A DNA stretch of 64,000 nt from Gemmatales bacterium. GTDB taxonomy: Bacteria; Planctomycetota; Planctomycetia; Gemmatales; HRBIN36. The notes under the pieces were generated by a model. The model was not told the DNA's origin, did not search any database, and worked only from the letters and a program-made list of their open reading frames with translations. The stretch is from NCBI GenBank assembly GCA_025060195.1, contig JANXCQ010000006.1, positions 62,001 to 126,000 on the forward strand, read 5' to 3'. Of the stretch, positions 5,422 to 26,513 are shown piece after piece. The translations under genes were made by a program, and so were the position numbers. How positions within the stretch are numbered: the stretch's first letter is position 1; every line of letters begins with the position of its first letter.

Positions 5422-5425
5422 TTCG

Positions 5426-5430
5426 CCTCC
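5426..5430 (-). promoter_or_regulatory. Shine-Dalgarno GGAGG deciding the start of the 902-residue exported protein
   Basis: GGAGG lies four bases upstream of ATG 5421. That ATG opens directly into a signal peptide, whereas the longer frame (to 5511) would bury the signal peptide behind 30 unrelated residues. Confidence 0.75.
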
Positions 5431-5666
5431 CGGCCTAAGCAGGTGTTCCCTATGGGTAATCGAACAAATCCGAGTGGGAATTCGGGTTCCTGGCTCCGCG
5501 ATACATAGCAATTGCCATGGTTTAGGGGAAGATCAGCCCTTACATAGCAGCCAAAGACGCAGGCAGGGCATCGCTGGGGAACGACCATCGTGCCCCCTAC
5601 ATCATGGAGGCGGTGGGTACGGACCTGCAGTTCTGGTGGCTCTGGCAGGAACCAATCTGGTTGCCG

Positions 5667-11321: not shown

Positions 11322-12446
11322 TCACTTCATATCTGAGCGCAGGTCTTGGGCCAGGAGTTGGTGAAAATGGTAAATCCCGGATTCGCGTCGTAGGCTATAG
11401 CGTCCCGTGTCGAAGACTCCGCTAGCTAAGCCCCGCTGTACGTCTTCACATATTTCCATATCTTCTTGTTGCACACGATCAGCCACAGCTATGCTTTCCG
11501 CAATATATTGTTCCGACTGCGGCGTACCCGGTTGCTCCGCAAAATAGAAATCGAAAATCACGCGGCAACGATCTACTCCTAGGGGCAGTACTAAATTGGT
11601 ATCCATATAGCCCTCATAAGCGTTGAGCATAAAGTTGGGATAGAGCCACCAATAAGCGGCCAATTGACCTTTACGCACCCCAGCAGCGCTCGCGTCTTCT
11701 CGCTGTGGATCCGGAGCCCGCATGGGACTGGCTTGCACGCTGCAATAGCGGAATGTCTCCGTCGTATAGTGCTTATAGTCGAGCACTGCTGCTAACGATC
11801 GGTGCAACGTCAGCACGTGATAGCCGCCATCGAGATAATTGTCCACAAACACCTTCCAATTGCAATGCAGGTCATAGATCCGTCGGGCCACGAAGTGAAG
11901 TTTCTCGATGGTGAAAATCCGTAATCGGTCTGGCATAGGGGCCAGGTACTCTTCCAAGGAGCAGCTTGGTTGACCAAGGTGTACGAAAATCAGCGGAGGC
12001 CATTCCGCGACTTGAACGGGGATGAGACCGTTTTCCTCCCGGCAAAATCCCTCGACACCGTCAAACTCGGGCACACCCCGTAAATTTCCCGCCAAATCAT
12101 AAGTCCAGCCGTGATAGCGGCAGCGGAAGCGATCCGCAGTGCCTTGCTCAGCCACGGCGACGCGGGCGGCGCGATGGCGGCAGACATTGTAAAAGCCGCG
12201 TAAAACTCCATCCTCTCCTCGCACCACGACGAGAGGCCAGCCTGCTAGGTCCAGGGTAAAAAACTGCCCGGGTTGCGCCACCTGATCAGAGCGGCCAGCC
12301 ACGAGCCAGTGGCGTGTAAAAACAGCGCGGCGCTCCCATTCGGCCAACTCCGCATCTGTGTACCAACTGGCCGGGATAGTATGGGCCTGACTTAGGGGTA
12401 AGTCGGCACGAAAACGCTGCAGCAAGTGATAGAGCTTGGGAGTCAT
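11322..12446 (-). CDS. Rieske non-heme iron oxygenase, alpha subunit type
   Basis: Protein of 374 residues. The Rieske [2Fe-2S] ligands are C89-x-H91 and C109-x2-H112. The mononuclear iron site is H210-x4-H215 in DNYLDGGYHVLTLH, with the third carboxylate probably in the later DMEICEDV segment. Family members use electrons from a reductase to hydroxylate or demethylate small organic molecules (aromatic acids, choline, carnitine, betaines). This single polypeptide resembles the homotrimeric alpha-only group. No ferredoxin or reductase gene lies in the window, so its electron donor must be elsewhere. It sits at the downstream end of the radical SAM/lipoyl-carrier operon, 171 bases after the double DGC gene, and may belong functionally with it. 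The substrate is unknown. Confidence 0.88.
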   Translation of the reverse strand: MTPKLYHLLQRFRADLPLSQAHTIPASWYTDAELAEWERRAVFTRHWLVAGRSDQVAQPGQFFTLDLAGWPLVVVRGEDGVLRGFYNVCRHRAARVAVAEQGTADRFRCRYHGWTYDLAGNLRGVPEFDGVEGFCREENGLIPVQVAEWPPLIFVHLGQPSCSLEEYLAPMPDRLRIFTIEKLHFVARRIYDLHCNWKVFVDNYLDGGYHVLTLHRSLAAVLDYKHYTTETFRYCSVQASPMRAPDPQREDASAAGVRKGQLAAYWWLYPNFMLNAYEGYMDTNLVLPLGVDRCRVIFDFYFAEQPGTPQSEQYIAESIAVADRVQQEDMEICEDVQRGLASGVFDTGRYSLRRESGIYHFHQLLAQDLRSDMK

Positions 12447-12617: not shown

Positions 12618-13727
12618 CTATGTGGCCGCAGGTTCATGGACTGCTCGCGGCACGTCGTAGCCCCGCGACGTGGCTTGGTATCCGAAGAACCTTTCGATGC
12701 CTACCGGATCGTTGACCATACCATGCGTACAGTGCGCTCGCGGTTGCCAACGCGTTTGCTGCAACAACTCTTGCAGTTCAGGCAACAGTTGTTCGGCCCA
12801 ACGTCGCGCTAGCTCTGACTCCTGCGGGGTCAGATCCGGCTCTAACACGCGGGTTTCACATGGATACTCGGGAAAGGCCTCGTACAGGTTCACGCTGCGC
12901 ACCGCAGGAATACCGAACAGTTCAGCTATCTTGGTTGCGCAATTTTGCGGACAACCGTTTAGGGCTACCGTCGGAAAGTCCCGGTAATAATGCACGTCTT
13001 CCGGGACGCCCGCGGCTAGGGCCGAGACACACAGCGGCTGCGATTGGCCCAGGAGCTTGTCCTCATCTTCGCAAAGGTGGTACGCCGTCCGCTGGGCAAT
13101 CCGCGCGCCACTTCGCTTGATCCCCTGACACGGTAGTAAGGTTAGTCCCTGCGCAGGGGGCGGCTCACCATTCGATTGGAGATTATCAGTAATTGGCTGA
13201 GCCGGGGGACTGAGCGAGTGTACTTGGCTTACGCCTTGATTCGGTGAGGGAGCCTCCGCTGGGGTCCGACCCGATGAGGAGCACGAACAAGCACACGGAC
13301 AACCTGTCCCAGCTTCCGGCTGGGCCGGAGAATCGCCCCAGGGTTCGTCCGCGAGCGCTAAAGCAATGCGCTCTGCCACCGCCTGAGCCAGTTGTTTCCC
13401 GGAAGCCTCCAGTTCTTTACGTGTGCGACCTGGGGTAAGGCGTTTTTCCCGAATGATGCGTGATACTTCAATCTTGGCTGCGGGCTTTGCTCCGACGAGC
13501 CGAAGCACGTGGCTGGCACAGCGTAACACACAGCCTTCGATGACCACTACAGGATGCTCGAATACTAGCCGCCTCTCGGCTGTGTCCCCTGCTAGCAGTG
13601 CGGGGAGGGACAGAATCTCCGTGTCCTCTGGGCAAGCGGCATGGGCCAGATACGCCGCCCGGCGGGTCACATTGGCCACCACTTTACCCACACCCATGCA
13701 AGGGGCGAGCACCACCTTATCGCTCAT
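12618..13727 (-). CDS. Tandem DGC-domain (putative zinc-binding) protein with Cys-rich linker
   Basis: Protein of 369 residues made of two copies of the DGC domain. Copy 1 covers about 1-125: Cys10 in APCMGVGK, and EGC at 64-66 followed by Cys70. Copy 2 covers about 195-320: Cys200 in LPCQGIKR, and NGC at 257-259 followed by Cys263. The family's name-giving Asp-Gly-Cys is Glu-Gly-Cys in one copy and Asn-Gly-Cys in the other, with the second Cys four residues on kept in both. The linker contains alternating cysteines C143, C145, C147 and C149, which could bind a metal. DGC proteins are thought to bind zinc but have no proven reaction. Its ATG overlaps the stop of the lipoyl-carrier gene (ATGA), showing translational coupling. 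Confidence 0.75.
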   Translation of the reverse strand: MSDKVVLAPCMGVGKVVANVTRRAAYLAHAACPEDTEILSLPALLAGDTAERRLVFEHPVVVIEGCVLRCASHVLRLVGAKPAAKIEVSRIIREKRLTPGRTRKELEASGKQLAQAVAERIALALADEPWGDSPAQPEAGTGCPCACSCSSSGRTPAEAPSPNQGVSQVHSLSPPAQPITDNLQSNGEPPPAQGLTLLPCQGIKRSGARIAQRTAYHLCEDEDKLLGQSQPLCVSALAAGVPEDVHYYRDFPTVALNGCPQNCATKIAELFGIPAVRSVNLYEAFPEYPCETRVLEPDLTPQESELARRWAEQLLPELQELLQQTRWQPRAHCTHGMVNDPVGIERFFGYQATSRGYDVPRAVHEPAAT

Positions 13728-14218
13728 CGGTTGATGTCTCCTTTCAAAGTCCGCTGAGTTTCTTCCCAGGTGGCCTCGAGGAAGGCTTTATATTGCTCGG
13801 CGTCCCAACTTTCACCCCTCACCTCACTCATAGCGAAAAGCCAGCCCGCCCCGTAACCGTCGAGATTGATTGGCGACGGGTCTTGCAGCAACGCCTGGTT
13901 GATTTCCACAAGCCGTCCGGCTAATGGGGCAAACAAATCCGCCGTCGCCTTCGAGGTTTCGATATGCCCAATGTGTTGCCAAGAATCCACCCAATCCCCC
14001 TCGCGAATATACCAGTCGAGAAAGTAAACATCCTGCATCAAGCGCACCGCGAAGCTGGTAAAACCAAAACGCCAACGTTCGCCCTGGGCTTGACACCACA
14101 TATGGTTGCGACAATACCGACGGTCGCGCGGCAGCACCGCCGCATATTTTCCCATCCAGAAGATTAATTCGCTTTCCCCCGACAAAGCGTCGTCCGATGA
14201 ATCGTTGCGTTTAGACAT
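13724..14218 (-). CDS. GcvH-like lipoyl carrier protein
   Basis: Protein of 164 residues with the glycine-cleavage H-protein fold. The N-terminal NHMWCQAQGERWRFGFT matches the 'HeWv...vGiT' strand pair, and IGHIETSKATADLFAPLAG carries the lipoylation lysine (Lys90), as in the family's ESVKA motif. PINLDGYGAGWLFAM matches the usual C-terminal signature. There are no gcvT, gcvP or gcvL genes nearby. Instead it overlaps the radical SAM gene upstream by 8 bases and the double DGC gene downstream by 4 bases. It is therefore probably a dedicated lipoyl carrier for another process, as is known for LbpA in sulfur oxidation. That parallel is inference only. Confidence 0.82.
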   Translation of the reverse strand: MSKRNDSSDDALSGESELIFWMGKYAAVLPRDRRYCRNHMWCQAQGERWRFGFTSFAVRLMQDVYFLDWYIREGDWVDSWQHIGHIETSKATADLFAPLAGRLVEINQALLQDPSPINLDGYGAGWLFAMSEVRGESWDAEQYKAFLEATWEETQRTLKGDINR

Positions 14219-15566
14219 ATCGGTGTGTACGATGCTGAGGCAAGAAAAATATGGGTAATAGTCTGTCTACTTGCAATAAGCCTGCGCGGGTGAGTACCAG
14301 TTGTTTGTCATCGAATTGCGCAAAACCTTGCTCGCTCAGCCAGTGAAGCTCCTCGCCAAAACGCAGGTTTAGCCGCTCACCGTATTTGTCCAAAAAATAA
14401 CCAAATTCAACTCGACCAGTTTTCAGTTGCAGGATGAACTCCCGCAAGCATAATTCCAAAGGCGCGCAAACATAGGCACGATACAAAGGCAAGCGACCTT
14501 CTCGTAAAGGTTGTAAATAAGTGTCCCACTCCGTGAAGTTTTGAACATGAACGCCTTGAATGTGTCCAAAAGACGCGACCCCTGTACCTAATAAATCTGC
14601 TCCGTGCCAGAGCGCATCACGATAATGAAATTGAACACGCTTCTTGTCACGGACGAGCGTGTAGCCACTGGAAACCTCATAGCCCGCAGCAATCAGTTGA
14701 TCGAAAGCGTAGTCCACCCAAGCACGCTTCGTGGGCCAATCGGCCAGAGGCAACGGTAAAGACTCTCCATTGCGAACGGTCTTCGCATACTCCGTGTTAT
14801 AAGGCAATTCCATCTGATAAATCGTGACACTATCCGGATTGAGAGCTATAGTCTGTCGAATGCATTCGCGCCAATTCTCCCATGTCTCTCCCACCATTCC
14901 AGCAATCAGGTCAATATTCACCTGGGGAAAGGCTAACTCTTGAATCCACTGGTATGCACGAAATATTTCCGCAGAGCGATGAGCCCGGCCATTTTCCTCT
15001 AATATCGTGTCATTGAAATTCTCAACCCCTAAACTTAGTCGCGTGATGCCCAGTTCACGCAATACTTCCAGTTTTTGCCGCTGCAAGGTGCCCGGCTCAC
15101 ATTCAAAAGTCACCTCCTTTACCTGCTCCCAAGGCATGAATCGTTTCAATGCCCCCAGGAAATCCCGTAATTGCCGAGCACTAAGATAAGAAGGCGTCCC
15201 CCCTCCGAAATAAACAAAATCTAAGCTCCTGTCTCGAATTGCAGCTTGAGAGCTATATATGCTCACTTCCACTAAGACACGCTGTAAGTATTCCTCAATA
15301 TCGCGAGCATTTTTGTCGGTATAGACGCGGAAATAACAAAATTTGCACCGTTTACGGCAGAAGGGAATGTGAACATATAGTCCTAAAGGAGATGCATGTT
15401 GAGGACTGCGGGAAAGAACCGCATGCACTGCCTCGACGCATTGCGGAGTCCAAAAGGAAAACGGAGGATAGTTCGCAATGAAATAGTTCCCGAGACCAGT
15501 TTTCTCCTGGTCACCAGCCAAGCTAATTTTTTTGCTAACCGCCGCGGTAGAGCTATCCCGGAGCAT
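14211..15566 (-). CDS. HemW-like radical SAM protein
   Basis: Protein of 451 residues. The [4Fe-4S]-SAM ligands are C70-x3-C74-x2-C77 in IPFCRKRCKFCYF, followed by VYFGGGTPSYL, ECEPGTL and RLSLGVENFND, which place it with the coproporphyrinogen-oxidase-like (HemW/HemN-type) radical SAM group. HemW proteins bind or insert heme rather than oxidise coproporphyrinogen, and many relatives have other jobs. A long N-terminal extension of about 60 residues precedes the core. It starts 2 bases after the PQQ-propeller stop and overlaps the lipoyl-carrier gene by 8 bases, so it belongs to a four-gene operon. Radical chemistry on, or partnered with, the lipoyl carrier is a hypothesis. Confidence 0.82.
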   Translation of the reverse strand: MLRDSSTAAVSKKISLAGDQEKTGLGNYFIANYPPFSFWTPQCVEAVHAVLSRSPQHASPLGLYVHIPFCRKRCKFCYFRVYTDKNARDIEEYLQRVLVEVSIYSSQAAIRDRSLDFVYFGGGTPSYLSARQLRDFLGALKRFMPWEQVKEVTFECEPGTLQRQKLEVLRELGITRLSLGVENFNDTILEENGRAHRSAEIFRAYQWIQELAFPQVNIDLIAGMVGETWENWRECIRQTIALNPDSVTIYQMELPYNTEYAKTVRNGESLPLPLADWPTKRAWVDYAFDQLIAAGYEVSSGYTLVRDKKRVQFHYRDALWHGADLLGTGVASFGHIQGVHVQNFTEWDTYLQPLREGRLPLYRAYVCAPLELCLREFILQLKTGRVEFGYFLDKYGERLNLRFGEELHWLSEQGFAQFDDKQLVLTRAGLLQVDRLLPIFFLPQHRTHRYV

Positions 15567-15568
15567 GA

Positions 15569-16681
15569 TTATTTTCCAAAGCAGAAGATCAAGCCGTCGT
15601 GATTACCGATGACGAGATGACCGCGGGCGATGGCTGGCGAGGCAGTAATGGCGGCTCCCGAGGGTACAGACCAAATCTGCTCCCCCGTGGCCAGGGCCAG
15701 CGCATAAAGGTGACCATCACCCGAACCTACATAAACGTATTTGCCCGCAAGGACGGGAGAGCTATCCACTTTGCCGCGCGTGGCAGTACGCCAACGAAGT
15801 TTACCGGTAGGGGCCTCTAAGCCGTACACTGCCCGGTCGCGACAACCGACGACCACTAAATTATCATGCACTGCAGGCGAAGCATAAAAGGGGAACGCAC
15901 GTTCCGGTTCAAATTGCCAGAGGATTTTCCCAGCCTTCCAATCGATGGCTAAGAAGGTCTTATCCATGTTGCCGACATATAGTCTATTGCCTACGATGGC
16001 CGGCGAGCCACCCACTTGGCCCCCTAATTCTAATTTGCGAATTTCTTTACCCGTCGCTAAATCTACAACGTGCAGTTGGGAATCACAGCCTCCTAGGATT
16101 GCTTTTCCCTCGGCGATGGCTGCGGTGGCATTGACTGGCCCTTCAGTCTGAACTTTCCAGACTAACTTCCCGGACTTGGCCTGTAAGCAATACAGATGCT
16201 CGTCATATGAGCCGATCACTATGCGATCTTTCCAAAACGACGCCCCGGCCACGATCTCCCCTTCGGTCTCAAACTTCCAGACATTCTTTCCCGTTTGCGC
16301 ATTCACCGCATGAAGAGTCCCTCGATTATCGCCGACATAAACGACGCCATCTTGATAAGCGGGCGGTGCCTTAATCGGCGCGCTGGCCGCGTATTTCCAT
16401 CTTTCCTTTCCGTCAGCTAGGTTGAGAGCATATAAGTGTCCGTCCATGCAACTGACGAAAACAGTATCATGCACAATAATGGCCGCGGCCTCTATACTGT
16501 CGCCGAGTTTCACCCGCCAGAGTTCTTTCAAAGGTGGTGCCAATTCCTCGGGTGCCACGCCCGTTTGCTCAGGATTACCCCGCCAAGTAATCCAGTCAGC
16601 AGAGGCTATTTCCCACGCAAGTCCCAGACTTAGAATTATAGCTAAGCATAGTCTTTTATTCCGAGTCTGCATCTTAGTCAT
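15569..16681 (-). CDS. Exported PQQ-like beta-propeller repeat protein
   Basis: Protein of 370 residues. A signal peptide (RLCLAIILSLGLAWEIASA) is followed by WITWRGNPEQTG and about seven blades of the form 'LYALNLADGKERWKY', typical of BamB/PQQ-like propellers (recurring YVG, G-x-hydrophobic-Y-ALxxxTGxxxW). It is probably periplasmic and acts as a binding scaffold or an electron-transfer enzyme; a bound cofactor cannot be inferred. The open frame runs to 16786 but would overlap the plus-strand GcvH-like gene. ATG 16681 has GAGG five bases upstream and begins the signal peptide. It heads the operon with the radical SAM, lipoyl-carrier and double DGC genes. Confidence 0.88.
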   Translation of the reverse strand: MTKMQTRNKRLCLAIILSLGLAWEIASADWITWRGNPEQTGVAPEELAPPLKELWRVKLGDSIEAAAIIVHDTVFVSCMDGHLYALNLADGKERWKYAASAPIKAPPAYQDGVVYVGDNRGTLHAVNAQTGKNVWKFETEGEIVAGASFWKDRIVIGSYDEHLYCLQAKSGKLVWKVQTEGPVNATAAIAEGKAILGGCDSQLHVVDLATGKEIRKLELGGQVGGSPAIVGNRLYVGNMDKTFLAIDWKAGKILWQFEPERAFPFYASPAVHDNLVVVGCRDRAVYGLEAPTGKLRWRTATRGKVDSSPVLAGKYVYVGSGDGHLYALALATGEQIWSVPSGAAITASPAIARGHLVIGNHDGLIFCFGK

Positions 16682-16711: not shown

Positions 16712-17161
16712 ATGGATTCGATGGAATATCTCCAAGCACCGGGCGGTATTCGGATTGCGGCAGATCGATGGTACCACCGTCATCACTATTGGATTCTATC
16801 TGATACAGCAGGAACTGGACACTATAAATTAGGGCTGACGGCTTATGTCTGCCGGCCTGGAATCGAAGTCTATTTTGTCGAACAATTACCACAACCAGGT
16901 ACCATTATCGTTGAGGGCGGATTACTCGGCGTCGTAGAGACCGAAAAAGCCGTGGTTTCTATTTATAGTCCCGTATTATGCCGTGTCGAAGCAGTCAATC
17001 GAACGGTGTTGGAAGATCCGAATTGCCTTAGTTTTGACAATTACCGCGTTTGGCTAATCGAATTTAGTACCACGGAATTACCGCCATTACTCAGTGCGAT
17101 AGAGTATTGCCAATATTTGCAAGAATTACCCCCACCTCAGTGCATATGGTCGAGGGCCTGA
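16712..17161 (+). CDS. Second GcvH-like lipoyl carrier protein
   Basis: Protein of 149 residues, the only plus-strand gene between 7.9 and 34.8 kb. LGLTAYVCRPGIEVYFVEQLP matches the H-protein core. VVETEKAVVSIYSPVLCRV carries the lipoylation lysine (Lys79), and NCLSFDNYRVWLIEFS resembles the C-terminal signature. It diverges from the PQQ/radical SAM operon, with only about 30 bases between the two starts for both promoters, and converges on the iron alcohol dehydrogenase with 6 bases between stops. No clear Shine-Dalgarno is visible; ATG 16721 is an alternative start. It is clearly different in sequence from the other H-like protein nearby, so this is an old pair rather than a recent duplication. 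Confidence 0.75.
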   Translation: MDSMEYLQAPGGIRIAADRWYHRHHYWILSDTAGTGHYKLGLTAYVCRPGIEVYFVEQLPQPGTIIVEGGLLGVVETEKAVVSIYSPVLCRVEAVNRTVLEDPNCLSFDNYRVWLIEFSTTELPPLLSAIEYCQYLQELPPPQCIWSRA

Positions 17162-17167
17162 CCAAGT

Positions 17168-18334
17168 TTAGTAGGCGGCCTGGTAAAGTTGCACGAAGTC
17201 GTCGAAGCTCACCGGCCGGGGATTAAATTTGCCCGTCCATTGTTGAGCGGCTTCTTCGGCCAATAAAGGTATAATTGCTGGGTTGACGCCTACTTCTTGT
17301 AATCGGCTGGGTAATCCTGCAGCCTGGCGTAAATGTTCGAGATGTGAGGCGAGCGTTTCGCCCGCATGGCTTGTAGCATGACATGATAAATCCGTCACTG
17401 CAACCAAATCGGCATAGAGGTTATCAACTTCCGTGCTATTGAAACGAATCACGTGAGGCAGCATGAGCGATACGGCTAAACCATGGACGAGACCGTAGTG
17501 CGCCGTGAGCGGGTTAGCTAAGGCATGGGTTGCTCCTAACATAGAAAGTTCGATTGCCTGCCCCGCGAGATGGGCGCCCAACTGCATGGCAGCGCGCGCT
17601 TCTAAGTCATGTGGATGTTCTAACACACGTAGAAAATTCGCCTGTAGTAGGCGCCAGGCCTCGCGAGCAAACATTTGCGACCAGACATTCCTTTTGGTGC
17701 AAACATAGCTTTCTAAAGCATGGGCCATGGCATCCAATCCCGTATCGGCGGTTACGTGTTTAGGTTGAGTAGTGGTCACGACGGGGTCTAAGATGGCGAT
17801 GCGAAATGCAGCTTTCCGATCGCCACAGGCCATTTTTATATGCGTTTCCGGATCAGCTATTAAGGCATACGATTGAGCTTCGCTGCCAGTACCCGCTGTC
17901 GTGGGAACGCCAATCGAAGGCAACATGGGTTGCTTGGCTTTGCCGAAGCCCCGATAGTCATGCATTCGGCCACCATTGGTGTAAAGGAAATTAATACCCT
18001 TAGCACAGTCCATCGCACTGCCGCCACCGACTGCGACTAAACAATCAGGGTGGAAATTTTGGGCGACAGCTACGCCTGCTTCCACATGGCGTGTTGTGGG
18101 ATTTTCTTCAACTCCGTCGAATATTTCTACCGTGATCCCTGCCTTGGTAAGGGATTCTCTAGCTCGTTGAGGATGGCCCACGGCCTCTAATCCGGGATCA
18201 GTGACCAATAGGACACGGGTTGCCCCTAAGTCGCGCGCTAATTCTCCAAGACGGTCTAACGCACCAATGCCAAACACTACTCGAGTAGCAGGAAAATAGT
18301 CGAAGTGACTAAGTAGGGCCGACATTCTTCCCAT
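17168..18334 (-). CDS. Iron-containing (group III) alcohol dehydrogenase
   Basis: Protein of 388 residues, the usual length. The NAD(P) site is GGGSAMDCAKGINFL. The metal ligands are in DTGLDAMAHALESY (Asp and His) and HGLAVSLMLPHVIRFN (two His), the Asp-His3 pattern of the family. These enzymes interconvert alcohols and aldehydes or ketones. It lies 30 bases downstream of the aldehyde/acyl reductase gene and on the same strand, with an acid-activating enzyme further upstream, so aldehyde-to-alcohol reduction is likely. ATG 18334 and ATG 18325 are both possible starts; neither has a strong Shine-Dalgarno. Confidence 0.9.
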   Translation of the reverse strand: MGRMSALLSHFDYFPATRVVFGIGALDRLGELARDLGATRVLLVTDPGLEAVGHPQRARESLTKAGITVEIFDGVEENPTTRHVEAGVAVAQNFHPDCLVAVGGGSAMDCAKGINFLYTNGGRMHDYRGFGKAKQPMLPSIGVPTTAGTGSEAQSYALIADPETHIKMACGDRKAAFRIAILDPVVTTTQPKHVTADTGLDAMAHALESYVCTKRNVWSQMFAREAWRLLQANFLRVLEHPHDLEARAAMQLGAHLAGQAIELSMLGATHALANPLTAHYGLVHGLAVSLMLPHVIRFNSTEVDNLYADLVAVTDLSCHATSHAGETLASHLEHLRQAAGLPSRLQEVGVNPAIIPLLAEEAAQQWTGKFNPRPVSFDDFVQLYQAAY

Positions 18335-18364
18335 AGTTACTTACCAGTCTGGGGGGGCGCGGAC

Positions 18365-19798
18365 TTAGATACGGATCCAATCTTTATCAAACTGAAAGGC
18401 GCGAGGCCGGAATAGGAAATCCACTATGTTTCCTTCGTGAGGTTGGAGCCAGTTTAGTTTAATCGTAGGAATAGGACCTATGTTGAGGCGGTCAATATGA
18501 GGGGCGTCGGCTAAGGTGCGCTGAAACTTAGCATCGGTGGTGATGGCTGTGCAAACTAACGTAGGTCCGATTTTTTCTACCATCTTGTCCTGTGGGCATT
18601 CTACGACAGTTACAAAGGGGAACATATATTCTTTTTTAGCGATATTGGCATCGGGAGAGGAACAAAAGATGACCATAGGACGCAGATAAGCGCAACGCTC
18701 CTGCTTGATAAGTCGTGGGCCGAATTTCGCCGTCATGTCCTCGACGCCGGGTTGAGTCAGGTCACGCTCGATATCAGCATAGATAGCTTCTGCTTGACCG
18801 GGAACCGTGAAAGCGGCGAGTTGGGCTTCCGGGTCGTCGGGAGGCCTCGGTTCAATTGGGCCCAGGCGTTCAGCTAACACTTGAGCAATTTTGCGACCGT
18901 GCCGAGAAACCCAGATGCCAGAACAGTTGATGCAACCTCGACCACTATTAACTAACACACTATCCACCATTAGGTCTAAGTAGCGTTCCCATTCGTCAAC
19001 TTTATCGTCGCCAAACAATATCTTACTGAATCCCGGCCCATGTACCTGAACACGTGGATTAGCCTTGTATTGTTCTACGGTCTGGGCACTGCCGAAAATC
19101 AGGCTGCGTGGACAAGCCTGGAGCACCGCGGCACCAACATCGCCTAAACCTGGGTAAATCGCAATGGCCTGCTTAGGAATCCCCGCTTGAAGGAAGGCTT
19201 GAGTCATGCGATACGGCGTCCAAGGTTCCTGGGGGCCTGGCTTGAGCACTAAGCCAATTTGTAAAGGTATAATGGGCAACCATAATGTGTGTACCCCAGG
19301 TGAGTTGCTGGGTAGGACTAAACCAAGCACTGGAGACTGACATTGATAGCTCACGGGAACACCGCGGTTCTCCACGCCATAACCGCGAGATAAAATTTCT
19401 AGGTCTAAGCCGCGGGTGAGTGAGTCTAAAATCTCGTCCATGTGAGTCAACACATAGAAATTTTTTTCCATGTTGAACCGACACATGTGCTCGGGCATGC
19501 CGGTGGTGGCCGATTGCATGCGTACGAACTGCTCCGGCGTCTGTGAACCATTACCAAGCGGTAGTTCAGCACGCGTATAGAGGTCAGCAGCTTTTTTGAG
19601 CATAGCCAATAGCTCGCGCACAGGAATCTCGCGGAGCACTTCCCGTGCGCGACGAGCATAGCGCAGGTCGCGTTCGACTAGCGCGGCATTAGCTCGACTG
19701 ACTTCCGCGAGCACTTCGCCGGTTTGGAAGTGTACCACGCGGTCAGTTTCCATGCTTTGATAGGGTTCGCCCCAACGGGAAATGGGGATGTGTAACAT
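18365..19798 (-). CDS. Aldehyde dehydrogenase superfamily protein, probably an acyl reductase (LuxC-like)
   Basis: Protein of 477 residues with the ALDH fold. LGLVLPSNSPGVHTLWLP matches the cofactor-proximal Asn region, and VNSGRGCINCSG supplies the catalytic cysteine (Cys289, with Cys292 next to it). The usual ALDH general-base Glu motif before the cysteine is not evident (SAQTVEQY, LFGDDKVDEW), as in acylating reductases and LuxC, which use an acyl thioester. AAGGAG six bases before ATG 19798 fixes the start. Placed between an adenylating enzyme upstream and an alcohol dehydrogenase downstream, it probably reduces an activated acid to an aldehyde. The acyl substrate is unknown, and classical aldehyde oxidation is an alternative. 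Confidence 0.7.
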   Translation of the reverse strand: MLHIPISRWGEPYQSMETDRVVHFQTGEVLAEVSRANAALVERDLRYARRAREVLREIPVRELLAMLKKAADLYTRAELPLGNGSQTPEQFVRMQSATTGMPEHMCRFNMEKNFYVLTHMDEILDSLTRGLDLEILSRGYGVENRGVPVSYQCQSPVLGLVLPSNSPGVHTLWLPIIPLQIGLVLKPGPQEPWTPYRMTQAFLQAGIPKQAIAIYPGLGDVGAAVLQACPRSLIFGSAQTVEQYKANPRVQVHGPGFSKILFGDDKVDEWERYLDLMVDSVLVNSGRGCINCSGIWVSRHGRKIAQVLAERLGPIEPRPPDDPEAQLAAFTVPGQAEAIYADIERDLTQPGVEDMTAKFGPRLIKQERCAYLRPMVIFCSSPDANIAKKEYMFPFVTVVECPQDKMVEKIGPTLVCTAITTDAKFQRTLADAPHIDRLNIGPIPTIKLNWLQPHEGNIVDFLFRPRAFQFDKDWIRI

Positions 19799-19884
19799 GG
19801 TGCGCTCCTTTCGGTGGGACTATAGGGTTGCTTAGTTAGTGGATTGTTTAGATTTTAAGTACACTTGATTTTATTTGAAGATCG

Positions 19885-21012
19885 TCAATAAACGCCAACC
19901 GTAGTCGTGGCGGCGAAACCGCGGAACGGTTTGACTCCGCTGATACCATCCCACGGAAAGCGTTCGCAGGGCGGTTCGCGAACGCCTTCATCCCGCTCAG
20001 GAAACCGCGGCATAAAGAATTCCTTAGTTAACGTGGTCAGTAGGACACGACCCTCTTGGCCGTAGTCCACAATGCGATTGTAATCGTCGAAGTCTACCAC
20101 TTCGATGACTGCACGAGGTTGGGGGGCATAGTACGTGATTTTGTAATTCTCCTCAGGCCTGGGCATAGGGGCAACGGCCAGACCCATGAGCGTGTTCCCG
20201 TAGGTCGGGGCAATGTAGATGCCCGGGCCTAACAGTTCTTCGATGGTGAAACGCATCCACTGCGGGGTCATTTCCGTGCCACCACAGAAAATCCCGGTAA
20301 TACCCATTTGCCGAAGGGAGGTACCGCGTTTTTCCAATTCGAGGGCTAAGGCCTCTAATAGTTTCGGAGTAGTGAACATGCACTTAATGTCGTGACCGGC
20401 CTCTAATATCGTCAGGGCTTGCTCAATGCAGTGTTCCATATAGGCCTTAGCTACGTCCACCCAGCCGCGTTTGAGACACTTGACGACCCAACGGGGATCT
20501 AAGTCAATGCAAAAACAGATGCCGCCGCGATATTGGCAAAGATGTTCCACGGCCAAGCGCAGGCGACGTGGCCCGGACGGACCGAGCATAAGCCAGTTAG
20601 CTCCTTTGGGAAAGTATTCGTCAGGTAATGTTTCGCTAAATTGCTCATAATCAATGCGAAAATCCTCAATATTGATGCGGGTCTTAGGGATGCCTGTAGT
20701 ACCGCCGGTCTCGAAAACATAGATAGGCCGATTCTGATAAGCAAGGGGCACCCACCGGCGCACGGGACCGCCACGGAGCCAATCATCCTCAAAGAACCCA
20801 AATTTTTTCAGGTCGGCGAAACCGTGAACTTCCTGGCGCGGGTCGAAATTGAGCTTGAAGTGCGGGTTCGTACCGGCGACAGCATCGAGCCAAAACGGTG
20901 TGCCGGTTTCTGGGCTGAAGTGCCAGTTAATGATTTCCCGAACATGGGCGTCGAGTTGGGCCCGAGCAGTCGCTACGCGTTCTTGCAAAGTTGACGATAA
21001 TAATGCAGTCAT
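19885..21012 (-). CDS. ANL-superfamily adenylating enzyme (LuxE/PaaK-like)
   Basis: Protein of 375 residues. FETGGTTGIPKTR at about 100-112 is the ATP P-loop of acyl-adenylating enzymes, and YGNTLMGLAVAP resembles the later adenylate-binding motif; GRVLLTTLTKEFFMPRF replaces the usual hinge region. It lacks the roughly 120-residue C-terminal subdomain that acyl-CoA synthetases have, a shape also seen in LuxE acyl-protein synthetases. It likely activates a carboxylic acid as an adenylate and passes it on as a thioester. It is transcribed first in the order adenylating enzyme, ALDH-like reductase, iron alcohol dehydrogenase, which is also the reaction order for reducing an acid to an alcohol. 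Confidence 0.7.
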   Translation of the reverse strand: MTALLSSTLQERVATARAQLDAHVREIINWHFSPETGTPFWLDAVAGTNPHFKLNFDPRQEVHGFADLKKFGFFEDDWLRGGPVRRWVPLAYQNRPIYVFETGGTTGIPKTRINIEDFRIDYEQFSETLPDEYFPKGANWLMLGPSGPRRLRLAVEHLCQYRGGICFCIDLDPRWVVKCLKRGWVDVAKAYMEHCIEQALTILEAGHDIKCMFTTPKLLEALALELEKRGTSLRQMGITGIFCGGTEMTPQWMRFTIEELLGPGIYIAPTYGNTLMGLAVAPMPRPEENYKITYYAPQPRAVIEVVDFDDYNRIVDYGQEGRVLLTTLTKEFFMPRFPERDEGVREPPCERFPWDGISGVKPFRGFAATTTVGVY

Positions 21013-21081
21013 AGCCGCGACAGGCTCCGTGGAAAAGCGGGTCTCTTAGTACGCTTAGTTTTGGGAACAAAGACGCGCGGG

Positions 21082-22728
21082 CTATTTCTGTTCGCTAATG
21101 GCATATAAGTTTTGGCGGGTCATGACGTAGAGGACACCGTTGACAGCTATCGGCGTGCTAAGTACGGGGGCTTCCATTTCGTTCTTAGCTAAAAGGCGTA
21201 GTTTTTTCCCATGTTCGAATACGTAAACCACACCTTCATCGGTGCCGATATAGACCTTGTTATCCACGACGTAAGGCGATCCCCAGATAGCTGCTAAGGT
21301 GTCGTATTCCCAATATTTTTCTCCCGTATAGGCGTCGAAGCAGGCGACGAAGCCACTTAGGTTAGCGATGTAACATAAGCCTTCATGTATAGCGCACGTG
21401 GACAATCCTCGACGCCACAGGAGCTTTCCGTCCTTGTCCTGACCGCCGACATGCCAAACTAAACCGGAGTTTTTGTTTTCTGGCGCTTTTGGATCGAAGT
21501 TGTCATTGACGGGACTTAGGTCAATATTGGTGGGACTGGCCTTGCTGGGGTCGATACACCATAGGTGTCCCACGCCTTCACCGTGTTCAGGGTCCTGACC
21601 GACCTGAACATAAACCCGGCCTTCATAAACCACAGGAGTGGCAATGATTTCGTTTTTCGTGCCGCGGCCGCCCAGGATGTACTTTGAATTCTTCGGATTG
21701 CAATCGAATTTCCAGAGCAGCTTGCCCGTCAAAGGTTCAAAAGCGTAGAGCCAACCATCGCCACCGGGAAAGATGACTTGGGGTTGTCCGTTGATGACCG
21801 CGTAGCAAGGGTTCGACCATTGTCCGTGGAGAATTTTATCGCCCGGCAGGTTGCTTTCCCAAATGACTTTGCCCGTGTGTTTATTGACCGCTAAGAAGCT
21901 GGGCGCCTGGGGCGCTGGGATGTTCTCATGGGATTCATCATGTCCGTTACCCGTAACGACATAGACGATATCGCCCACGACCAATGGGGAGCAGACCGCC
22001 AAGTTATGGGGAAAAACGCCGAGTTCTTCCATCATGTCCAAACGCCAAATAAAATCTGCGTCCATCTTTTCCTTGTACTTTTCATCCTGGGCACCGTCGT
22101 TTTTGCCATCGAGAAAACCTTCGGTATCAGCGCAGACCAACTCGCAACGATTGCTCACGTAATACACGCGGTTTCCTTCGACATACGGGGAGGAGCAAAT
22201 ACCCTGCTCAGGCCAATCATTAACGCGTCCGGAGGGAAGCTTGTCGTGAACTGCCTGCCAGAGACATTGTCCGTCCGATTCACGCAGACAAAGCAAGATG
22301 CCTTTATCTATCGGAATTAGCTCATTGCCTTTTTTGATGGCATCGCGGGGATTTCGAAGACCACCGTTGTTAGTGCCAAGGAAAATTTTGCCCCCGTAAA
22401 CTACAGGATTGCCATACGATTGGGAACCTAATTTAGCTACCCACTTGATATTTTTGGGCGAGATTTTGCGGCGCTGGTCGCCGATGTGCCACTCGGCGGG
22501 CAGACCTTTCTCGACCGTGTTGACCATGTTGCGAGCCGGAGTACCGCCAAACATCTGCCAAACACGTTGATGGGGCTTGCCCGGTTCCGGTTTCGCACCC
22601 TGGGCATGAATGCGTGGCCCGCGAGGCGGAGTGGTCGGATCGGACTGCGCCCACCAAGCCACCGCGAGGAAACAGGTGGCAGAAAGGAAAGCCAGGGGCC
22701 AACGGAAACCAGGGGACAGAGATTGCAT
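21082..22728 (-). CDS. Exported PQQ-like beta-propeller protein
   Basis: Protein of 548 residues. An N-terminal hydrophobic segment (WPLAFLSATCFLAVAWWA) acts as signal or anchor. The rest is an eight-bladed-type propeller with repeated motifs such as ILLCLRESDGQCLWQ, FLAVNKHTGKVIWES, LYAFEPLTGKLLWKF, FVACFDAYTGEKYWEY and VYVFEHGKKLRLL. It contains inserted charged loops and conserved NGQPQVIFPGGDGWLYA. The PQQ cofactor of true quinoproteins cannot be confirmed. The neighbouring gene upstream is a second, longer PQQ-propeller, with 64 bases between, so both are probably envelope partners of the same system. GAGGAG lies upstream of the ATG. Confidence 0.85.
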   Translation of the reverse strand: MQSLSPGFRWPLAFLSATCFLAVAWWAQSDPTTPPRGPRIHAQGAKPEPGKPHQRVWQMFGGTPARNMVNTVEKGLPAEWHIGDQRRKISPKNIKWVAKLGSQSYGNPVVYGGKIFLGTNNGGLRNPRDAIKKGNELIPIDKGILLCLRESDGQCLWQAVHDKLPSGRVNDWPEQGICSSPYVEGNRVYYVSNRCELVCADTEGFLDGKNDGAQDEKYKEKMDADFIWRLDMMEELGVFPHNLAVCSPLVVGDIVYVVTGNGHDESHENIPAPQAPSFLAVNKHTGKVIWESNLPGDKILHGQWSNPCYAVINGQPQVIFPGGDGWLYAFEPLTGKLLWKFDCNPKNSKYILGGRGTKNEIIATPVVYEGRVYVQVGQDPEHGEGVGHLWCIDPSKASPTNIDLSPVNDNFDPKAPENKNSGLVWHVGGQDKDGKLLWRRGLSTCAIHEGLCYIANLSGFVACFDAYTGEKYWEYDTLAAIWGSPYVVDNKVYIGTDEGVVYVFEHGKKLRLLAKNEMEAPVLSTPIAVNGVLYVMTRQNLYAISEQK

Positions 22729-22792
22729 AGTTCGACGTTCTCCTCATCAAATCGCTTTCAGTCAATGGAAGCCGTGGGGATCGGGCCTCCCG

Positions 22793-25099
22793 TCAGCGGT
22801 TAGGATAAATGCGGACGTTATCGAAAAAGGCCTCAGCTCCGGGAGAATTAGCGGTGATGCCAGTAGCGTAGGCGTATAATGCGGCTGCACCTTCGGTGTT
22901 AGGGATCGGATCTTCGGCAGTGATGGTCCACTCTGCAGGTTCCGGCTGGTCGCGAGGCCAAACTTTGCCCTGTAGGAGACCTTTACCGTCCACTACTTGC
23001 ACGCGGAGTTTGAAGCGATACCAGATGCCTGCTCTCCAGGGATAGTCCACTTTGGCATTGATCCGCCCCGGAATAGCGTCGGGTGGGGCGTCCTCAGGGC
23101 GACGCGCTTCCCAGGTGCGCAAGAGTAATCGCTGCTTATTCCCGTCTAAGGTCAGGCTATAACGGCAGTTGACGACGCCCATGTCAGGCAAGTTCCGTCG
23201 TCGCTCCGTAGCCATCAGGTCCGCTTCAATAGTGTAATCGCGTGCTTGGGGAGTAGTAATAAAAGCCAAGGCTCGCGCCAGCATGGGGTTTGGGTTATTG
23301 GCGAGCTTTTTGAGCACTTTGTTCTGAGGGTTGGTGGGGTCTGCGGTAACGACAAACTTACCAGCGACATTGACCCAGCCACCTGGCACCGCACCTTCGG
23401 GAAGCGTGTCGAAGGTCTGCACTAAAGGAATGCGGGGCGCGACACGGACGCGCGCCCGTGCGCTCAAGTGACGCCAATGGGCCTGAACATAACCATGCTG
23501 CGCGGGAACTTGGGGGTCGGCCGTGAAGACACCATCTGCGAGGGTGCCCCGCAATGGTGGAGGTGAAGGGGCCGGCTTGCCTTCCGGTGTCTTGGCAGTA
23601 ATTTCCGGAGCCGGTAGTGTCCAGCTTTGTGGCGTGATCTCGCCGAGCACCTGGCCACGGGCGTTATAAAGACGTGCCCGAAACCTAACTTGCTGGCCCG
23701 GTTCAAGCACAACGTCGGCGGGAAGGAGTTGAAGCCAACCGGGTTCGTCTCTGGGATCGACCGCTGGTTCGGCGGTCATCGCAGGCACTGGGCCGGCGCG
23801 GCTTTCTTGAGTACCCAGACAATACAGAGCGTCGCCCGTGGTGAAGTAAAGCCGACCGTTCCACACAGCCGGGCTTCCATTGTTTTCGATAATCTCGCCC
23901 TGGGGACCCACCGGGTTGGAGAAAGAATGGATGGTTTTACAACTCCGCTCTCCGGGCTCCAGGATGTGGAACTTCCCAGCAACTTCCATGACGTAAATCT
24001 TGCCGTCGGCCCATACAGGCGAACCGCGGCCCATGGTACCGAATTTATGTTCCCAGAGCGTTTCGCCTGTTAGCGCATCTAAACAGAATAGTTTGGCCGA
24101 GTTATCAACGACGTAGAGGCGGTCGCCATGCAAAGCAGGGGAGGCCAGTCCTGCCAAAATCCCGAGGCGCCGCCATACCAGTTTTGGTTGCCGCTCCCGC
24201 ACCTGCGCAGCGTCCAGGCAATAGACGCCGCCCATTTCGTTCGTATCAAGATTTTCGTCGCCGTGTGTAATATAAACCCGCGAGCCTGCGACCACGGGCG
24301 ACGGATTGATACCCCGCTTGGAGATCGCAAAGCTCCAAACCGGTTTTCCAGTGCGCGATTGTAAAGCATGTATAGCACCGTCGGCCCCGCCGCAGATAAT
24401 CAGGCGTTCGCCTTGAATCGCCGCCACTACAGGTACGGAATAGAGCGTGTCCACGGGCACGTCGCCGGGCTCCGACCACCAAAGCACTTCGCCTGTACGC
24501 TTGTCGAAGGCAACGAAGCGATGACCGGCTCGTGCCTGGTCTCCCCAACTGGCGTTGAGGAAGTGAAGGATAACACGGTCTTCGTCCACGATCGGCGATG
24601 TCGTTCGGCCGCCATAGCCGGAAATGCGGCCATATTCTTCAGTAAGCGAACGCGACCATACCACCTTGCCATCAGGTGAGAAACACAGGAGAAGTCCTTG
24701 AATGCCGTGGGCGTAGACGTAACCTGTCTCAGCATCTGCCGCCAGATTCGCCCAGCCGACGCGGTTGGTGACGATGTCAGTGTGGAAAATGTTGAACCGG
24801 TATTCCCAGAGCAACTTGCCCGTGTCGGCATCAAAACACATGACCCGTTCCTGCTCACGGACCTTGCCGGGCTCGGCGCCGTTAATGATGTAAACTCGTC
24901 CTTGACAGATTACGGGTGTCGAGCGGCCGCCATAAGGTTGTTTCCAAAGCAGATTCAGTCCCGTAGCCGACCATACGGCAGGTAAGCCCGTGTCGCGCGA
25001 AACGCCATTTTGTTCCGGGCCACGCCAATGCAACCAGTCGGCTGCCCAGGCCAAGCATGTTCCAGCATACAACACCGCGAGAGCAGCCCAAATTCGCAT
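22793..25099 (-). CDS. Exported PQQ-like beta-propeller protein with extra C-terminal beta domains
   Basis: Protein of 768 residues. A signal peptide (IWAALAVLYAGTCLAWA) is followed by a propeller of about 400 residues (DWLHWRGPEQNG, VMCFDADTGKLLWEY, HALQSRTGKPVWSF, LFCLDALTGETLWEH). After it come an Ig-like segment (VLEPGQQVRFRARLYNARG) and a C-terminal lectin-like domain (VQTFDTLPEGAVPGGWVNV to EAFFDNVRIYPNR), probably for sugar or surface binding. The open frame reaches 25237 but would overlap the PaaK-like gene. ATG 25099 with GGGAG nine bases upstream begins the signal peptide. It is co-directional with the second propeller and the acid-activating genes. Confidence 0.85.
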   Translation of the reverse strand: MRIWAALAVLYAGTCLAWAADWLHWRGPEQNGVSRDTGLPAVWSATGLNLLWKQPYGGRSTPVICQGRVYIINGAEPGKVREQERVMCFDADTGKLLWEYRFNIFHTDIVTNRVGWANLAADAETGYVYAHGIQGLLLCFSPDGKVVWSRSLTEEYGRISGYGGRTTSPIVDEDRVILHFLNASWGDQARAGHRFVAFDKRTGEVLWWSEPGDVPVDTLYSVPVVAAIQGERLIICGGADGAIHALQSRTGKPVWSFAISKRGINPSPVVAGSRVYITHGDENLDTNEMGGVYCLDAAQVRERQPKLVWRRLGILAGLASPALHGDRLYVVDNSAKLFCLDALTGETLWEHKFGTMGRGSPVWADGKIYVMEVAGKFHILEPGERSCKTIHSFSNPVGPQGEIIENNGSPAVWNGRLYFTTGDALYCLGTQESRAGPVPAMTAEPAVDPRDEPGWLQLLPADVVLEPGQQVRFRARLYNARGQVLGEITPQSWTLPAPEITAKTPEGKPAPSPPPLRGTLADGVFTADPQVPAQHGYVQAHWRHLSARARVRVAPRIPLVQTFDTLPEGAVPGGWVNVAGKFVVTADPTNPQNKVLKKLANNPNPMLARALAFITTPQARDYTIEADLMATERRRNLPDMGVVNCRYSLTLDGNKQRLLLRTWEARRPEDAPPDAIPGRINAKVDYPWRAGIWYRFKLRVQVVDGKGLLQGKVWPRDQPEPAEWTITAEDPIPNTEGAAALYAYATGITANSPGAEAFFDNVRIYPNR

Positions 25100-25199
25100 C
25101 GTTCTTCGCTCCCACGTGGAAGTTTTTAGGTATTTCTTCCGTGCCGTTCTGGGGGGACAATCAATGGGATAATTAGTATAGGGGAAAGCGGAAGAATAG

Positions 25200-26513
25200 C
25201 TACGTTTCCTTACGCCAACGTCGAGCTTTGAGTTCATACCGCGGGAGTGAGCCGGGAGCTACGACCAGGACAGTTGGGTTCACCAGGAATACAGACTTGA
25301 CCTCCTGTGCGATCCGTTCTGCCCATTGCATCGCTGCCGGACCATCCGCCAGCTCATGCGTAGATGGTTCGACCTCGATGAGGAAACTCTCCGTGACCTG
25401 GTCGCTACGCCAGGTAACGCGATACTCGACCAATTCGGGAAAACGGTGTAACACCTCGTCCAGAGCACTGGGGTAAATTTTGACACCGCGAACCACGACG
25501 AGGTCGTCGAACCGACCGAGGATGCCGCCCTGGAGACGCAGCCAGATGCGACCGCAAGGGCACGGCTGAGGATCCACTAAAACCCGGTCACCTGTACGAT
25601 AGCGGATCAGGGGGCTGCCCCATCGACCTAAATTGGTGAGTACTAACTCGCCCTCGACTCCTGCAGGGACAGGCTTGCTTGTGCTCGGATCGATCACTTC
25701 AGCGATGCATTCCGTCTCCAGCAAATGTACCCCACCTGGGTTCTCGGGACACTCAATCCCAAGTGACCCGATTTCGGTCATGCCTGTGTGGTCAAAAACT
25801 CGTGCCTGCCAACCTTGTTCGATGCGCTGACGCACGTGCGGCACGCTGCCGCCCGGTTCCCCGGCCACGATAAGTAAACGAACCGCACTATCCTGGAGTG
25901 TTAAACCTTCGCGTCGCGCTACTTCCAACAGGTGTAATGCATAAGTGGGCGTGCAAAAGATTACGGTGATACGGTGCTCTAAGATAGCCCGAAGCCGCGC
26001 TACGCTTGTCATGCCACCGCCGGGCAGGACGAACCAACCGCCACGTACGGCCGCATCCCAGGCCGCCCAGAATCCCAAGAACGGGCCGAAGGAGAATGGA
26101 AAGAATAAGCGGTCCCCAGCTCGCAGGCCCACAACCTGGAAGATCCAACGCCAACATTGCATCAGCCACTCCCAATTTTCAGGCGTGTCGGGCCAACGTA
26201 ATGGTTGTGCTGTGCTTCCTGAGGTCTGGTGGACGCGCACATATCGTGCCACTGGGTAAGTCAAGTTGCTACCATAAGGCGGATGCTGACGCTGGTCGGC
26301 TAACAATTCGTCCTTAGTCGTGAAGGGCCAAGCTGACATTTCGTCTAACGAGCGGGGCAACGGGAATTGACCGAGCTTACGTTGATAAAAGCGATTCCGA
26401 AGTAAGATTTCCGTGAGCATGGCGCGCAGGCGTTCCAACTGCCAGGCCCGTAATGCTTCTCGATCCGTTTGTAAATCTCGTTCACCAAGACGGGCCATAT
26501 CAACCTGCCCCAT
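25200..26513 (-). CDS. PaaK-type phenylacetate-CoA ligase family protein
   Basis: Protein of 437 residues, the normal length for PaaK-type ligases. The P-loop VHQTSGSTAQPLRW is at about 94-107, FDHTGMTEIGSLGIECPE is the adenylate motif, and RYRTGDRVLVDPQPCPCGR is the hinge motif with its Cys pair. VVRGVKIYPSALDEVLHRFPE opens the C-terminal swivel domain that carries out the thioester step. It probably forms an aryl- or acyl-CoA. The gene lies between SerA and the PQQ-propellers in the same minus-strand block as the LuxE-like enzyme, so two acid-activating enzymes are present. The true substrate cannot be read from sequence. Confidence 0.85.
   Translation of the reverse strand: MGQVDMARLGERDLQTDREALRAWQLERLRAMLTEILLRNRFYQRKLGQFPLPRSLDEMSAWPFTTKDELLADQRQHPPYGSNLTYPVARYVRVHQTSGSTAQPLRWPDTPENWEWLMQCWRWIFQVVGLRAGDRLFFPFSFGPFLGFWAAWDAAVRGGWFVLPGGGMTSVARLRAILEHRITVIFCTPTYALHLLEVARREGLTLQDSAVRLLIVAGEPGGSVPHVRQRIEQGWQARVFDHTGMTEIGSLGIECPENPGGVHLLETECIAEVIDPSTSKPVPAGVEGELVLTNLGRWGSPLIRYRTGDRVLVDPQPCPCGRIWLRLQGGILGRFDDLVVVRGVKIYPSALDEVLHRFPELVEYRVTWRSDQVTESFLIEVEPSTHELADGPAAMQWAERIAQEVKSVFLVNPTVLVVAPGSLPRYELKARRWRKET

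What the first reader, a model, noticed from the sequence alone, without database searches (positions are those of the whole stretch)
12618..16681. Operon of PQQ-propeller, HemW-like radical SAM, GcvH-like carrier and double DGC protein
Seen: four genes with gaps or overlaps of +2, -8 and -4 bases, so very likely one transcript. Known: H-protein lipoyl domains serve glycine cleavage or, as LbpA, sulfur oxidation; HemW-like proteins bind heme or SAM; DGC domains bind zinc. Inference: a lipoyl-based redox or sulfur/metal process that I cannot match to a described system.
Basis: partly seen in the sequence, partly recalled or inferred. Interest (0 to 1): 0.7.

Follow-up and report, generated by a model that had tools for sequence, protein, structure and literature searches.

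The report
Lipoyl carrier in conserved planctomycete cluster
The four adjacent genes are real, but they are one genus's version of a much larger, apparently undescribed gene cluster conserved across planctomycete bacteria, in which a lipoic-acid carrier that is not the glycine-cleavage one travels with a ferredoxin and isoprenoid-building enzymes; what it makes is still unknown.

Summary
The four-gene run is confirmed to the base. PQQ propeller, HemN-superfamily radical SAM (rSAM) and GcvH-like protein (GcvH1) belong to a planctomycete cluster: AMP-ligase, aldehyde DH, Fe-ADH, PQQ, rSAM, GcvH1, ferredoxin (Fd), often rSAM2, squalene-cyclase-like protein, DUF116-isoprenyl synthase. In 80 named loci rSAM lies directly before GcvH1 in 70 and Fd directly after it in 62. 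GcvH1 is a separate clade from glycine-cleavage GcvH (99/100); the attachment lysine is kept in 102 of 102; the own genome has a canonical gcvH beside gcvT plus lipA and a lipB-like gene. GcvH1 and Fd have identical presence/absence in 41 relatives (33 present, 8 absent), DUF116-isoprenyl synthase nearly so, while rSAM is in all 41. So GcvH1's functional partner is probably Fd/DUF116-isoprenyl synthase, not rSAM. HemW's heme motif (0 of 98) and LbpA's cysteine pair are absent. Best guess: a dithiol swinging-arm carrier for Fd-driven redox or sulfur chemistry in an isoprenoid pathway. Identity strong, chemistry inferred.

The parts
13724..14218 (-). GcvH1: GcvH-like lipoyl carrier, 164 aa, attachment Lys90 (ETSKA)
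   Evidence: PF01597 65.6 bits; below GcvH cut-offs in NCBIfam, 71 of 115.85; separate clade from canonical GcvH; ExxKA in 102 of 102
14211..15566 (-). HemN-superfamily radical SAM protein, 451 aa
   Evidence: PF04055 81.9 bits; below cut-offs of HemN, HemW, HutW; HemN structure 1olt matched over residues 49-437; CxxxCxxC in 98 of 98, HNxxYW in 0 of 98
15569..16681 (-). PQQ1: BamB-like beta-propeller with an N-terminus that reads as a signal peptide
   Evidence: PF13360, Beta-prop_ACSF4; orthologue 5' of rSAM in many conserved loci
12618..13727 (-). double DGC-domain protein, genus-specific addition
   Evidence: two PF08859 stretches; found only in the own genus
16712..17161 (+). GcvH2: second, divergent GcvH-like protein, 149 aa, Lys79
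   Evidence: PF01597 47.8 bits; 67% identical in the sister species; on a long branch on the GcvH1 side of the tree
17168..18334 (-). iron-containing alcohol dehydrogenase (FeADH) of the conserved cluster
   Evidence: PF00465 172.9 bits; conserved position
18365..19798 (-). aldehyde-dehydrogenase-family protein (ALDH) of the conserved cluster
   Evidence: PF00171 75.6 bits; in 41 of 41 relatives
19885..21012 (-). AMP1: short AMP-binding (adenylate-forming) protein
   Evidence: PF00501 29.2 bits, just below the cut-off; TGGTTGxP motif in 37 of 37 orthologues
21082..22728 (-). PQQ2 propeller protein
   Evidence: PF13360; orthologues in the cluster
22793..25237 (-). PQQ3 propeller protein
   Evidence: PF13360; orthologues in the cluster
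25200..26513 (-). PaaK-like CoA ligase
   Evidence: PF00501, PF14535; orthologues in the cluster
11322..12446 (-). Rieske ring-hydroxylating-type oxygenase; loosely associated, downstream of DGC in both species of the genus
   Evidence: PF00848, PF00355; 90% identical in the sister species

Best explanation
The finding is the genus-specific form of the junction of two conserved planctomycete modules. Module A (PQQ3, PQQ2, AMP-ligase, aldehyde DH, Fe-ADH, PQQ1, HemN-superfamily radical SAM) would activate a carboxylic acid, reduce it to aldehyde and alcohol, and carry out one radical step. Module B (GcvH1, a 4Fe-4S ferredoxin, often a second radical SAM, a squalene-cyclase-like protein, a DUF116-isoprenyl diphosphate synthase fusion) is an isoprenoid-linked module. 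GcvH1 is a lipoylated H-type protein that no longer serves glycine cleavage; its lipoyl dithiol swings between the ferredoxin and a partner (DUF116 and/or a radical SAM) to deliver electrons, or less likely sulfur or an acyl group, to an isoprenoid-derived product. The double DGC protein, the second GcvH-like protein and the Rieske oxygenase are later additions in this genus, where the ferredoxin and the isoprenoid genes lie on other contigs. Shown: gene content, order, co-occurrence, lysine and motif conservation, a separate canonical gcvH/gcvT, presence of lipA and a lipB-like gene. Inferred: lipoylation, partners, redox role, product.
For: Conserved order in planctomycete loci: of 80 named loci, 70 have rSAM directly 5' of GcvH1 and 62 Fd directly 3'. 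GcvH1 and Fd have identical presence/absence in 41 relatives (33/8; Fisher 1e-8, not corrected for kinship) and DUF116-isoprenyl synthase agrees in 32 of 33, while rSAM and ALDH are in 41 of 41. Where rSAM lies elsewhere in the genome, GcvH1-Fd-cyclase-DUF116/IDS stay together (L176, L179, L180, L191). Attachment lysine 102 of 102. GcvH1 clade apart from canonical GcvH. Canonical GcvH beside GcvT. LipA, and a lipoyl/octanoyl-transferase-type gene adjacent to it. DXDD motif in 41 of 41 cyclase-like proteins. The own genome keeps Fd (C60) and cyclase + DUF116/IDS (C104).
Against: No product or substrate is known. The isoprenoid link could be simple gene neighbourhood. GcvH1, Fd and DUF116/IDS are absent in four other genera of the own family, so the module is dispensable. 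Co-occurrence in 41 related genomes amounts to perhaps two or three independent events. Lipoylation is not shown. In the own genus the genes are scattered over three contigs.
Confidence: 0.42

Rival explanations
1. GcvH1 is a sulfur-carrying lipoate-binding protein in the manner of LbpA: sulfane sulfur passes from TusA to the lipoyl dithiol and on to iron-sulfur or DGC partners.
For: LbpA is a GcvH-like protein essential for Hdr-like sulfur oxidation (PMC6067878). In the own genus a TusA-family gene (PF01206, 44.1 bits) lies directly before the ferredoxin gene in both species. GcvH2 keeps three cysteines in both species (two sequences only).
Against: The two LbpA cysteines are not conserved in GcvH1: no column exceeds 48% Cys in 102 sequences. 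No hdr-like or lipoate-ligase genes were recognised in the flanks examined. TusA is next to Fd only in the own genus.
Confidence: 0.15
2. The rSAM acts directly on a group bound to GcvH1; the two form an enzyme-carrier pair, as HemN-like class C enzymes act on tethered substrates.
For: Adjacency in 70 of 80 loci and an 8-base overlap in the window; all 33 relatives with GcvH1 have rSAM, 43 of 45 at phylum level. NocN, a radical SAM methyltransferase, is a weaker structural relative.
Against: rSAM is in 41 of 41 relatives, including 8 without typical GcvH1, and in many loci of other planctomycete classes without GcvH1 nearby. In family f4 the two are far apart.
Confidence: 0.2
3. GcvH1 is a spare H protein for glycine cleavage or a lipoyl-relay hub.
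For: GCV_H family match and attachment lysine. Lipoyl relay by GcvH is known (LipM/LipL, PMC6067878).
Against: A canonical GcvH above cut-offs sits beside GcvT in the same genome. GcvH1 is a separate clade with its own C-terminal signature and is absent together with Fd and DUF116/IDS while a canonical-type GcvH remains in most of those genomes.
Confidence: 0.08
4. The locus is for heme (HemW-like chaperone) with metal-binding helpers.
For: The rSAM is in the HemN/HemW/HutW superfamily.
Against: It is below all curated cut-offs of HemN, HemW and HutW; the HemW heme motif HNXXYW (PMC11834973) is in 0 of 98 orthologues; no tetrapyrrole genes were noticed in the conserved locus.
Confidence: 0.05

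Closest known systems
LbpA, lipoate-binding protein of the Hdr-like sulfur oxidation system
   Same: GcvH-like single lipoyl domain outside glycine cleavage, in a gene cluster with redox and radical SAM genes
   Different: LbpA's conserved cysteine pair, hdr-like genes and dedicated lipoate ligase / LipS genes were not found; canonical LipA with an adjacent lipB-type gene is present instead
GcvH-related protein NF045810 and DVU_1553-type AMP-dependent ligase NF045666 of desulfovibrios (that these sit in one neighbourhood is from memory)
   Same: window proteins give sub-threshold matches: GcvH1 55 bits, PaaK-like 159.8 bits, AMP1 25.1 bits
   Different: scores far below cut-offs (150 and 300); gene content and host phylum differ
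GcvH of the glycine cleavage system
   Same: GCV_H domain and attachment lysine
   Different: 71 of 115.85 bits; separate clade; extra C-terminal signature W...Q(R/K/N)..K; no gcvT/gcvP recognised nearby
HemN / HemW / HutW radical SAM enzymes
   Same: CxxxCxxC, GGGTPS, full-length HemN similarity (1olt)
   Different: below all cut-offs; no HNXXYW; set in an AMP-ligase/aldehyde DH/ADH/propeller cluster

Membership tests
Glycine cleavage H protein (GcvH) | score above curated cut-off (TIGR00527 115.85 bits) | tested here: not met
   71.3 bits; the canonical copy in the same genome scores 136.8
Glycine cleavage H protein (GcvH) | lipoyl-attachment lysine in ExxKA context | tested here: met
   102 of 102
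Glycine cleavage H protein (GcvH) | gene linked to gcvT/gcvP, or the only H protein of the genome | tested here: not met
   gcvT lies beside another gcvH on contig C32
LbpA | two strictly conserved cysteines near the N- and C-terminus (PMC6067878) | tested here: not met
   no column above 48% Cys in 102 GcvH1
LbpA | linked to hdr-like and lplA/lipS genes | tested here: not met
   none recognised in the conserved flanks examined; the rest of the genome was not searched for hdr genes
HemW heme chaperone | score above cut-off (TIGR00539 205.4 bits) | tested here: not met
   166.7 bits
HemW heme chaperone | HNXXYW heme-binding motif | tested here: not met
   0 of 98 orthologues; motif from PMC11834973
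HemN-type radical SAM superfamily | CxxxCxxC cluster motif and HemN-like length | tested here: met
   98 of 98; 1olt aligned over residues 49-437
DGC domain (PF08859) | score above gathering cut-off, two copies | tested here: met
   79.5 bits of 27, two stretches; 45 and 47 bits apart
DGC domain (PF08859) | zinc binding | not testable with these tools
   cysteines of PCxG and GC...C are kept in both copies
Lipoylated protein | lipoyl group on Lys90 | not testable with these tools
   lipA and an adjacent lipoyl/octanoyl-transferase-type gene exist in the genome

The most novel reading that the evidence does not exclude
A lipoyl-dependent isoprenoid pathway that belongs to planctomycetes: a dedicated H-type carrier passes electrons from a ferredoxin to a DUF116-isoprenyl diphosphate synthase / terpene-cyclase system, a use of lipoic acid outside 2-oxoacid dehydrogenases, glycine cleavage and sulfur oxidation.
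Probability: 0.22. Interest if true: 0.8.

Novelty: new variant of a known kind. Interest (0 to 1): 0.58.

Why it matters
Lipoic acid has few known jobs. A lipoyl-carrier family conserved through much of the planctomycetes, travelling with a ferredoxin and isoprenoid enzymes, would be another one, and it is testable in cultured species that carry it (Zavarzinella formosa, Limnoglobus roseus, Gemmata sp.; loci L240, L225, L244). It also gives a large, apparently undescribed conserved cluster to a phylum whose lipid and cell biology is unusual.

Tried and rejected
DGC fold by AlphaFold2 on four domain copies: pLDDT 41.6, discarded. Fd N-terminal domain: confident alpha/beta fold (pLDDT about 90 in most of residues 1-160), no PDB match at E below 0.001. 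DGC against the PDB by sequence and against plasmids: no match. Literature: no paper found for the cluster, for DUF116 with lipoate or for PF08859 (hits concern diguanylate cyclases). Promoter/terminator scan: no excess of promoters over shuffles, slight excess of terminator-like sites, uninformative. Chorismate lyase for the c4a neighbour: only a sub-threshold Pfam match (E 0.021), not claimed. Tri-selenoprotein (TrsS) idea: only sub-threshold family matches, not pursued.

Full report
1. Observation. The window is in a 3.94 Mb draft genome. It has the same four genes in the same order at 74-81% protein identity, including the 4-base overlap of GcvH1 and DGC.

2. A second GcvH-like gene (GcvH2, 16712-17161, + strand) lies divergently just upstream of the propeller gene, and the next genes upstream (Fe-ADH, aldehyde dehydrogenase, AMP-binding protein, two PQQ propellers, PaaK-like ligase; 17168-26513) belong to the same conserved locus.

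3. The conserved cluster. Neighbourhoods were read in 20 planctomycete loci from across the phylum, 19 more from relatives, 20 chosen around Fd or distant GcvH1 and 80 named loci found with a GcvH1 profile in GTDB genomes. All 80 kept loci are titled as planctomycetes except one titled only 'bacterium'; 312 stretches passed the search but only the best 80 were kept, so absence outside the phylum is not shown. The recurring order is PQQ3-PQQ2-AMP1-ALDH-FeADH-PQQ1-rSAM-GcvH1-Fd-(rSAM2)-squalene-cyclase-like-DUF116/isoprenyl diphosphate synthase, at times followed by a chorismate-lyase-like protein and a halogenase/geranylgeranyl-reductase-like flavoprotein. Of the 80, 70 have rSAM directly 5' of GcvH1 and 62 have Fd directly 3'.

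4. Two modules. In loci of other planctomycete classes the AMP1-ALDH-FeADH-PQQ1-rSAM block occurs without GcvH1 nearby. In family f4 the rSAM is elsewhere in the genome, but GcvH1-Fd-cyclase-DUF116/IDS stay together in several genomes (L176, L179, L180, L191). In 41 relatives, rSAM and ALDH are in all. GcvH1 in its typical form is in 33; Fd in exactly the same 33; DUF116/IDS in 32 of those and in none of the rest in typical form. G019 and G150 carry divergent forms of all three, G098 a divergent DUF116/IDS only. Fisher tests give 1e-8 and 9e-8 but ignore kinship; the changes amount to perhaps two or three independent events. The finding therefore sits at the junction of two modules, and GcvH1's tightest partners are Fd and DUF116/IDS.

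5. GcvH1. It scores below every curated GcvH-type cut-off, falls on the opposite side of a 99/100 branch from E. coli and planctomycete GcvH, keeps the attachment lysine in 102 of 102 sequences, and has its own C-terminal signature in 96 of 102. The own genome holds a canonical GcvH (136.8 bits) next to GcvT, a LipA (391.5 bits) and a lipoyl/octanoyl-transferase-type gene adjacent to it, so lipoylation is plausible. It is not LbpA by the cysteine test (PMC6067878).

6. The rSAM. It is a full-length HemN-superfamily protein below the cut-offs for HemN, HemW and HutW. CxxxCxxC is kept in 98 of 98 and the HemW heme motif HNXXYW is in 0 of 98 (PMC11834973). NocN, a radical SAM methyltransferase, is a weaker structural relative. 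Its substrate is unknown.

7. DGC, GcvH2, TusA. The DGC protein is found only in the own genus. It occupies the place after GcvH1 where Fd usually lies. In the own genus Fd is on another contig, directly after a TusA-family gene, and cyclase + DUF116/IDS are on a third. Both DGC copies keep the PCxG and GC...C cysteines; the N-terminal copy lacks the cysteine before the ALxAG stretch. GcvH2 groups with GcvH1 on a very long branch (support 93/50), so its origin is open.

8. Mechanism, inferred. The AMP-ligase, aldehyde dehydrogenase and Fe-ADH suggest acid to aldehyde to alcohol reduction; the cyclase-like protein (DXDD motif in 41 of 41) and isoprenyl synthase suggest an isoprenoid; ferredoxin and a lipoyl carrier suggest delivery of electrons through a dithiol. 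I could not identify the product. In the own genus, TusA, DGC and a second carrier leave room for a sulfur role.

9. Novelty. No paper describing the cluster was found in the open-access library held, which misses most subscription journals. I rate GcvH1 as a new variant of the known kind 'GcvH-like lipoyl carrier outside glycine cleavage'.

Noticed in passing
L173:8982-10468 and L174:9545-10944: TusA-family gene directly before the GcvH1-associated ferredoxin gene in both species of the own genus, not elsewhere in the loci examined.
   Followed up: partly
L185:8403-11263 and L186:7916-10988: In two genomes of the order (G150, G019) GcvH1 and Fd are replaced by a divergent but still linked GcvH-like/ferredoxin pair.
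   Followed up: partly
L181:11583-12884, L183:7755-8939: In family f66 a NirJ/SPASM-like radical SAM and a CobW-family GTPase sit near GcvH1, Fd and the cyclase.
   Followed up: partly
L048:10710-16403: In other planctomycete classes the rSAM is followed by a glycosyltransferase, a 4HBT thioesterase, a PaaK-like ligase, a chorismate-lyase-like protein and a halogenase-like flavoprotein: perhaps a 4-hydroxybenzoate-derived product.
   Followed up: partly
L225:9512-10534 (alignment A4): The Fd has a well-predicted N-terminal alpha/beta domain of about 160 residues with no significant PDB match.
   Followed up: partly
window 11322-12446: Rieske oxygenase with a sub-threshold glycine-betaine monooxygenase match, kept downstream of DGC in both species.
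   Followed up: no
window 2713-5511 and 30406-32010: ORFs of 932 and 534 aa with no Pfam match at the cut-off used.
   Followed up: no
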